A stretch of DNA of 38,543 nucleotides from Bifidobacterium breve. GTDB lineage: Bacteria; Actinomycetota; Thermoleophilia; Miltoncostaeales; Miltoncostaeaceae. The DNA lies in NCBI GenBank assembly GCA_945873475.1, contig CAMCDF010000002.1, positions 1 through 38,543 on the forward strand, in the 5' to 3' direction. A program made the position numbers and the translations under genes. This document shows positions 16,196-17,256 of this stretch, piece by piece (positions within the stretch are counted from its first letter, which is position 1; each line of letters opens with the position of its first letter). The notes beneath the pieces were generated by a model. It did no database searches. It saw only the letters and a list, made by a program, of their open reading frames with translations, and had not been told where the DNA came from.

Positions 16196-16612
16196 GTGAG
16201 GTTGCCGTCCGCGCTGGCGCACCAGATCATCGAGCACGCACGCGCCGAGTTCCCCAACGAGTGCTGCGGCCTCATCGCCGGCAGTGGAGACCTCGCCACC
16301 CGGGTGCTGCCCACCACCAACGCCGAGGGCACCCCGTTCATGTACGTCATGGACCCGCGCGAGCAGATGGAGCTGATGGACGCCATCGAGGACGCCGGCG
16401 AGGACCTCGTGGCCATCTACCACTCGCACACCCGGTCGGCGGCCTACCCGTCGAAGACCGACGTCGAGCTGGCGTTCTTCGCCGAGCCGCTCTACGTGAT
16501 CGTGTCGCTGCAGGACGCCGACCAGCCGGTGATCCGCGCCTTCCGCCTGGCGCGGTCGGCGCCGGAGGGCGAGCAGATCACCGAGGAGCCGATCACGGCT
16601 CCCGACGCGTGA
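16196..16612 (+). CDS. mec: JAMM/MPN metalloprotease, Mec-like CysO-cysteine peptidase
   Basis: FPNECCGLIAG and JAMM motif YHSHTRSAAYPSKTD; last gene of the cysO-cysM cluster. Confidence 0.88.
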   Translation: MRLPSALAHQIIEHARAEFPNECCGLIAGSGDLATRVLPTTNAEGTPFMYVMDPREQMELMDAIEDAGEDLVAIYHSHTRSAAYPSKTDVELAFFAEPLYVIVSLQDADQPVIRAFRLARSAPEGEQITEEPITAPDA

Positions 16613-16985
16613 CCGTGCCCACCCGGTCGAGGGCCCGGTCGAACGACAGCACCTCGCCCACGCCCGTGGCCTCGGCCTGGGCGGCCAGGTATGCATCGGC
16701 GAAGGCGAGCCTCTCCCGCTCGTAGATCGTCAGGGCGCGCAGCAGCACCGGCGTGTCCACCGTCCGTATGCCCGGGTGCGCCAGTGCCGCGCGCATCAAT
16801 TGCGCAACGCGGCCCCGCGGCACCTCGTACACCGACGCCAGCACGTACACGCACTCGGCGAGGACCAGGTCGCAGAGCAGCAGTGGCTCGCCCGATGCCA
16901 GGGCCGCGGTTGCCCGGGCCGCCATGTCGGGCGGGTCGCCCGTGAGGTGCCGGATGATGACGTTGGTGTCGACGAACGCGGTCAG
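16593..16985 (-). CDS. PIN-domain toxin (VapC-like), apparent CTG start
   Basis: Extended N-terminus reads (CTG)TAFVDTNVIIRHLTGDPPDMAARATAAL; C-terminal ERERLAFADAYLAAQAE and LSFDRALDRVG. CTGA overlap with the antitoxin stop; in-frame TGA 16998-17000 leaves only CTG. Confidence 0.85.
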   Translation of the reverse strand: MTAFVDTNVIIRHLTGDPPDMAARATAALASGEPLLLCDLVLAECVYVLASVYEVPRGRVAQLMRAALAHPGIRTVDTPVLLRALTIYERERLAFADAYLAAQAEATGVGEVLSFDRALDRVGTVTRREP

Positions 16986-17224
16986 GCGTCTCCCCGGTCA
17001 CGGTATGCGCGCTTGAGCACGTCGGCCCATGCCATTCCGCGCACCGCCGGGGGCACGGCCACGCATCCCGCCATCGCGATGAAGTCATCCGACCGCGCGA
17101 TGGTCGCGTGTGATCCCTCGACCCGGAACAGCACGGCGTCACCCTGCTCGAGGTTCAGCGCATCGCGCACCGGCTTGGGGATCGTCACCTGCCCCTTCGA
17201 CGTGACTCGTGCATGGATGTCCAC
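16982..17224 (-). CDS. AbrB/SpoVT-type antitoxin
   Basis: VDIHARVTSKGQVTIPKPVRDALNLEQGDAVLFRVEG; GTG 17224 preceded by AAGGAGG. Confidence 0.88.
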   Translation of the reverse strand: MDIHARVTSKGQVTIPKPVRDALNLEQGDAVLFRVEGSHATIARSDDFIAMAGCVAVPPAVRGMAWADVLKRAYRDRGDA

Positions 17225-17236
17225 GCTAGCCTCCTT

Positions 17237-17256
17237 ACTGTGACAGTGATGTAAGG
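17237..17256. promoter_or_regulatory. putative autoregulatory operator of the AbrB/PIN module
   Basis: Perfect ACTGT-g-ACAGT palindrome 17237-17247, inside CCTTAC(17233-17238)...GTAAGG(17251-17256), at the antitoxin ribosome-binding site. Confidence 0.4.

What the first reader, a model, noticed from the sequence alone, without database searches (positions are those of the whole stretch)
16983..17000. PIN toxin starts at CTG in a CTGA overlap with its antitoxin
Minus strand: TGA(16998-17000) CCG GGG AGA CGC CTG(16983-16985) ACC GCG TTC GTC GAC ACC AAC GTC = (M)TAFVDTNVIIRHLTGDPP, a canonical PIN N-terminus whose first catalytic Asp is in FVDTNV. The only start-like codon is CTG, and it overlaps the antitoxin TGA as CTGA, exactly analogous to the usual ATGA/GTGA coupling. 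A weak CTG start would also suit keeping toxin below antitoxin.
Basis: partly seen in the sequence, partly recalled or inferred. Interest (0 to 1): 0.7.

Follow-up and report, generated by a model that had tools for sequence, protein, structure and literature searches.

The report
CTG-start toxin overlapping antitoxin stop
In this uncultured actinobacterium a toxin gene begins at the rare start codon CTG, which overlaps the stop codon of its antitoxin gene; the arrangement is conserved in relatives, and even housekeeping genes of this genus begin at such odd codons where they overlap the preceding gene's stop codon.

Summary
On the minus strand a PIN-domain (VapC-like) toxin has one possible start, CTG 16985-16983, overlapping the AbrB/MazE-type antitoxin's TGA (16984-16982) as CTGA; an in-frame stop (17000-16998) lies four codons upstream.

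It is not a sequencing error or decayed gene. In 55 homologous pairs the overlap codon is CTG 26, GTG 20, TTG 7, ATG 2. A cluster of 21 neighbouring members from several actinobacterial families, window included, is CTG without exception, though third-codon positions are near saturation; none of the other 39 antitoxin codons examined has an invariant third base. Other PIN genes of the class rarely do this (3 of 36).

It is not toxin-specific. In the window's genus, maf and dnaJ (19 of 19 loci each) start at CTG in CTGA overlaps, and adk starts at ATA (GTA in one species) in an overlap with the upstream stop.

Best reading: stop-coupled (termination-reinitiation) initiation at a non-canonical codon, here a weak start kept by selection. 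Initiation is inferred from conservation; no protein or ribosome data exist. Initiator-tRNA anticodon stem and IF3 look normal, so the cause of the tolerance is unknown. CTG starts and 4-nt overlaps are each known; genus-wide fixation on core genes looks new.

The parts
16593..16985 (-). PIN-domain (VapC-like) toxin, 130 codons from CTG plus TGA stop; acidic residues D6, E44, D97, D116
   Evidence: Pfam PF01850 E=1.3e-18; 84% identical homologs in two species of the genus; conserved residues
16983..16985 (-). CTG start codon of the toxin
   Evidence: only start-like codon in the open frame; CTG at the same place in 21 of 21 members of the cluster
16982..16984 (-). TGA stop of the antitoxin, overlapping the CTG as CTGA
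16998..17000 (-). in-frame TGA upstream of the toxin frame; excludes an upstream start
16990..16995 (-). GGGGAG, possible Shine-Dalgarno element 4 nt before CTG
   Evidence: sequence; 11 of 26 CTG members carry a 4-nt SD-like match against 1 of 20 GTG members (Fisher p=0.006, not corrected for relatedness)
16982..17224 (-). AbrB/MazE-type antitoxin, GTG start 17224-17222
   Evidence: PF04014 E=8e-11, TIGR01439 E=3e-12
17230..17236 (-). AAGGAGG, strong Shine-Dalgarno of the antitoxin, 5 nt before its GTG
   Evidence: sequence; similar in homologs
17233..17256 (-). CCTTAC-N12-GTAAGG inverted repeat, probable operator; its right arm overlaps the antitoxin SD
   Evidence: matched by a strict pattern in 31 of 40 homologous pairs that could be scored; the operator role is inferred

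Best explanation
This is a chromosomal AbrB/PIN (VapBC-like) pair. The antitoxin is translated first from a strong SD and a GTG. Ribosomes that terminate at its TGA slip back one base, put CTG in the P site with initiator tRNA, and restart to make the PIN toxin (termination-reinitiation in a 4-nt overlap). [quoted passage not shown] In this pair CTG is kept by selection, most likely because it lowers toxin output relative to antitoxin. The same stop-coupled use of non-canonical codons is fixed in core genes of this genus (maf and dnaJ CTG, adk ATA), so it is a lineage habit and not a toxin invention. Shown: the anatomy, the absence of other starts, conservation and purifying selection. Inferred: that CTG is decoded by initiator tRNA, the reinitiation step, and the lower toxin yield.
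For: Only start in the frame. 55 pairs: CTG 26, GTG 20, TTG 7, ATG 2. The 21-member CTG cluster keeps C as last base of the last antitoxin codon in 21 of 21 while the amino acid there varies (R, G, H, S, T, A, P); the other 39 codons examined reach at most 20 of 21, and that one is mostly Trp. 13 of the 21 have no ATG/GTG/TTG upstream in the open frame or between CTG and the catalytic Asp. In the genus trio, codons 2-20 after CTG differ 17 synonymous to 3 nonsynonymous, while the same frame upstream differs 11 to 39, so protein-coding constraint begins at CTG. Other PIN overlaps: CTG 3 of 36 (Fisher p=5e-5). Housekeeping: maf CTG 19/19; dnaJ CTG 19/19 (12 in a strict count); adk ATA in 16 and GTA in 1 of 17 genus members, ATA in two sister genera, with A as third base of the last secY-like codon (CAA, TCA, CGA) where third-position A is about 6%.
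Against: No Ribo-seq, N-terminal proteomics or reporter data. All genomes of the genus are draft assemblies. Initiator-tRNA anticodon stem and IF3 look normal, so nothing explains relaxed start choice. C is also common before TGA in ordinary genes (0.53-0.65), which weakens the neutral test (0.6^21 = 2e-5 if rows were independent, which they are not). Eight cluster members still have an in-frame ATG or GTG upstream inside the antitoxin gene. For maf the invariant C is not special against its neighbours.
Confidence: 0.85

Rival explanations
1. CTG at the overlap is merely tolerated: the base before the stop is a free third codon position, and any NTG there works equally well because the stop codon positions the ribosome.
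For: Over the whole family the base follows third-position composition (A 2, C 26, G 20, T 7 against 6, 19, 24, 6 expected; p=0.09).
Against: Within the CTG cluster C is invariant at near-saturated divergence while GTG and TTG dominate elsewhere (5 C of 34). In ordinary overlaps of the genus ATG and GTG dominate (53 and 49 against 9 CTG and 2 TTG), so start identity does matter there.
Confidence: 0.3
2. The toxin frame is entered from the antitoxin frame by programmed -1 frameshifting, giving a fusion protein, and CTG is read as Leu.
For: The geometry (-1 frame at the stop) would allow it; Leu is invariant at that place within the cluster.
Against: No slippery heptamer; the bases before CTGA differ from species to species for PIN and dnaJ; GTG, TTG and ATG replace CTG in other family members.
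Confidence: 0.04
3. Translation starts upstream inside the antitoxin gene at an ordinary ATG/GTG, and CTG is an internal codon.
For: Eight cluster members, including the two genus relatives, have ATG/GTG upstream of CTG in an open frame, in the relatives 51 nt upstream.
Against: An in-frame stop closes that frame in the window and in most members, and the upstream frame shows no coding constraint.
Confidence: 0.03
4. Sequencing error or pseudogene.
For: Draft metagenome assembly; only 3 of 20 searched genus members carry the pair.
Against: CTG recurs in homologs from several species and independent projects; dN/dS about 0.14-0.2; catalytic residues kept; synteny kept in L009.
Confidence: 0.02

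Closest known systems
VapBC toxin-antitoxin modules (PIN toxin with AbrB-fold VapB antitoxin)
   Same: Gene order, PIN acidic residues, AbrB/MazE-type antitoxin, inverted repeat in front of the operon, overlapping genes; the weak fold hits are mostly VapBC.
   Different: CTG start of the toxin; sequence below the NCBIfam Mtu_PIN_fam cut-off (25 against 73.6 bits).
Termination-reinitiation at 4-nt (NTGA) overlaps
   Same: Stop and start share bases; coupling tested for overlapping pairs in Haloferax and E. coli (PMC6728339, PMC10666635; review PMC12548453).
   Different: The passages read describe ATGA and GTGA; CTG does not occur in the main text of the two surveys and CUG does not occur in the review.
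CTG-initiated Rhs orphan toxin of Salmonella Typhimurium
   Same: A toxin translated from a CTG start at low yield (PMC7043789).
   Different: No stop-codon overlap with an antitoxin is described in the passages read; internal transcription inside an rhs gene.
Rare CUG starts in prokaryotic genomes
   Same: CUG is an admitted start codon (NCBI table 11; own knowledge).
   Different: Very rare switch: 2 of 61,358 ancestral AUG starts and 1 of 5,080 GUG starts changed to CUG in 36 genome groups (PMC5622118); here it is fixed across a cluster of toxins and in core genes.

Membership tests
VapBC type II toxin-antitoxin | PIN-domain toxin with conserved acidic residues | tested here: met
   PF01850 E=1.3e-18; D6 and D116 21/21, E44 20/21, position 97 D or E in the cluster
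VapBC type II toxin-antitoxin | small antitoxin with a DNA-binding domain encoded upstream in the same operon | tested here: met
   MazE/AbrB domain, 4-nt overlap
VapBC type II toxin-antitoxin | operator palindrome for autoregulation | tested here: inconclusive
   conserved CCTTAC...GTAAGG repeat in front of the antitoxin; binding not tested
VapBC type II toxin-antitoxin | toxicity rescued by the antitoxin; RNase activity | not testable with these tools
   needs expression experiments
Termination-reinitiation coupled gene pair | overlapping stop and start codons | tested here: met
   CTGA at 16985-16982
Termination-reinitiation coupled gene pair | downstream translation depends on translation of the upstream gene | not testable with these tools
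   needs a reporter with an early stop in the antitoxin
CTG-initiated gene | no standard start available and coding constraint beginning at CTG | tested here: met
CTG-initiated gene | protein N-terminus observed at CTG | not testable with these tools
   no proteomics or Ribo-seq available

The most novel reading that the evidence does not exclude
In this actinobacterial genus (and partly its family) start selection in stop-overlapping genes is set mainly by the position of the upstream stop codon, so that CTG and even ATA/GTA serve as fixed, selected starts of core genes (adk, dnaJ, maf) and of a toxin family: a lineage with relaxed, stop-guided initiation.
Probability: 0.45. Interest if true: 0.8.

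Novelty: new variant of a known kind. Interest (0 to 1): 0.62.

Why it matters
CTG and ATA starts are usually dismissed as annotation noise and most gene finders do not call them, so these toxins, DnaJ, Maf and Adk are probably mis-annotated in this lineage. A natural, conserved NTGA series (ATGA, GTGA, TTGA, CTGA) at one locus, and ATAG in a normally essential gene, make it directly testable whether the terminating ribosome or the start codon decides where a coupled gene begins, and whether weak starts set toxin-to-antitoxin ratios.

Tried and rejected
Frameshift fusion: no slippery sequence, contexts differ. Upstream start: frame closed by TGA in the window. Relaxed initiator tRNA: the three G-C pairs of the anticodon stem are present. 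Loss of IF3: present in the window's genome and in every relative at least 90% complete (24 of 24). Counting all genes without a standard start near coding onset gave 29 of 367 in the window's genome and 35 of 294 in G149, too noisy to use because onset calls are rough; only cases conserved across species were kept. Several CTGA sites in other genes have an ATG or GTG nearby and were not counted. A PDB search by sequence found nothing, and the structure model from six sequences is poor at the N-terminus (mean pLDDT 69.6), so its fold hits are only weak support.

Full report
Observation. The minus strand carries a PIN-domain toxin whose stop-to-stop frame (16997..16593) contains one start-like codon before the catalytic Asp, CTG 16985-16983. 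It overlaps the antitoxin's TGA (16984-16982) as CTGA. The TGA at 17000-16998 quoted in the finding is the stop that closes the PIN frame upstream; it is what excludes any upstream start. Pfam gives PIN (E=1.3e-18) and MazE/AbrB antitoxin (E=8e-11). The antitoxin has a strong SD (AAGGAGG, 17236-17230) lying in the right arm of a CCTTAC...GTAAGG repeat, which a strict pattern finds in 31 of the 40 homologous pairs that could be scored.

Homologs. The pair is patchy: 3 of 20 genomes of the genus, more in other families of the class and phylum. Two genus relatives (84% identical) have CTGA at the same place; one of them (L009) has the same neighbours: a permease, carbonic anhydrase, JAB protein and cysteine synthase. 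In 55 distinct pairs the overlap codon is CTG 26, GTG 20, TTG 7, ATG 2; leaving out those with another standard start nearby, 24, 20, 4 and 1. Nearly all lie at the window's register, four codons between the start codon and the catalytic Asp codon.

Is it selected? A tree of the PIN proteins, start residue left out, places 21 CTG members, the window included, in neighbouring branches without a single other codon (one branch of 17, one of 3 and a single row), across families f1, f5, f7 and f9. CTG versus other needs 6 changes over the tree; many forks are weakly supported, so I call this a cluster and not a proven clade. In these 21 the last antitoxin codon always ends in C although it encodes seven different amino acids, while PIN third positions differ by 52% at the median. 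None of the other 39 antitoxin codons examined is invariant at the third base; the nearest, 20 of 21, is mostly a Trp codon. C before TGA is common in these genomes generally (0.53-0.65), so the test is strong but not extreme. In the genus trio, coding constraint begins at the CTG: codons 2-20 differ 17 synonymous to 3 nonsynonymous, the same frame just upstream 11 to 39. Thirteen of the 21 have no standard start upstream in the open frame or before the catalytic Asp.

Controls. In other PIN genes of the class with a clean NTGA overlap the codons are GTG 21, ATG 11, CTG 3, TTG 1; CTG is enriched in the window's family (p=5e-5) and ATG depleted (p=2e-4). These p-values ignore relatedness. In general overlaps of three genomes of the genus the counts are ATG 53, GTG 49, CTG 9, TTG 2, so start identity matters there, and ATG is far above what third-position A (about 6%) would give.

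Beyond the toxin. Looking for the same pattern in the window's genome led to three core genes. Maf starts at CTG in a CTGA overlap with a gene read here as ndk in all 19 genus loci found; DnaJ starts at CTG in a CTGA overlap with a grpE-like gene in all 19 genus loci found, each of the 12 strictly scored having an SD-like element; Adk starts at ATA in an ATAG overlap with a secY-like gene in 16 of 17 genus loci, GTA in the other (G014), and ATA again in two sister genera, one of them as ATAA. Seven adk, eleven maf and all twelve strictly scored dnaJ copies have no ATG/GTG/TTG anywhere upstream in the open frame. For adk the last codon of the upstream gene ends in A (CAA, TCA, CGA) in genomes where third-position A is about 6%. 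For dnaJ the last codon of the upstream gene varies (S, R, H, N, P) but always ends in C. For maf the invariant C is not distinctive against neighbouring codons. The names ndk, grpE and secY rest on reading the C-terminal sequence, not on a family search. Other families of the class have ordinary adk and dnaJ starts where scored, and the three maf genes scored outside the genus have standard starts available.

Mechanism. The simplest account is termination-reinitiation, already established for overlapping pairs (PMC6728339, PMC10666635), acting on non-canonical codons because the terminating ribosome is already in place. For the toxin a weak start is probably useful, and ATG is avoided; this last step is inference. 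CUG initiation complexes are reported to be less stable than AUG, GUG and UUG ones (PMC11497404). I found no molecular cause for the tolerance: initiator-tRNA anticodon stem normal, IF3 present. A CTG-initiated toxin at low yield has a precedent in the Salmonella Rhs orphan (PMC7043789).

Novelty. CTG starts, 4-nt overlaps and VapBC pairs are each known. What I did not find in the open-access papers searched is fixation of CTG at a toxin-antitoxin junction across a family branch, or genus-wide CTG/ATA starts of core genes at stop overlaps. The search was narrow, and most subscription journals are not covered.

Limits. All evidence is from DNA. Genomes of the genus are draft assemblies. Gene calls in the control scans were made with a simple codon model.

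Noticed in passing
L300-L318 (secY-adk junctions): Adenylate kinase, normally essential, has only ATA (GTA in L315) as start, overlapping the preceding stop as ATAG, GTAG or ATAA, across the genus and two sister genera.
   Followed up: yes
L330-L348 (grpE-dnaJ junctions) and L360-L378 (ndk-maf junctions): DnaJ and Maf start at CTG in CTGA overlaps in every genus locus found.
   Followed up: yes
window 25174 (+): Phosphoesterase-like ORF 'LSSTIRIGVVADTH...' with a CTGA overlap; a GTG 24 nt downstream is an alternative start. Compared with one other genome only.
   Followed up: partly
L419 4287 (+) and its ortholog in the window: The same overlap reads CTGA in G007 and ATGA in the window's genome, a possible ATG/CTG interchange; the CTG copy has a GTG 33 nt downstream.
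   Followed up: partly
L418 10897 (+) and L401 10584 (+): Further single-genome candidates without a nearby standard start: a CTAG overlap before '...IRIWIDATNSPHV' and a CTGA overlap before 'LTPSLQPLVVIYDGDCRFC'.
   Followed up: no
L159, L194, L200: Three PIN genes of other subfamilies in the class also have CTGA with no standard start nearby.
   Followed up: no
L060: A truncated family copy in which the antitoxin TGA position reads CGA and no start remains; looks decayed.
   Followed up: no
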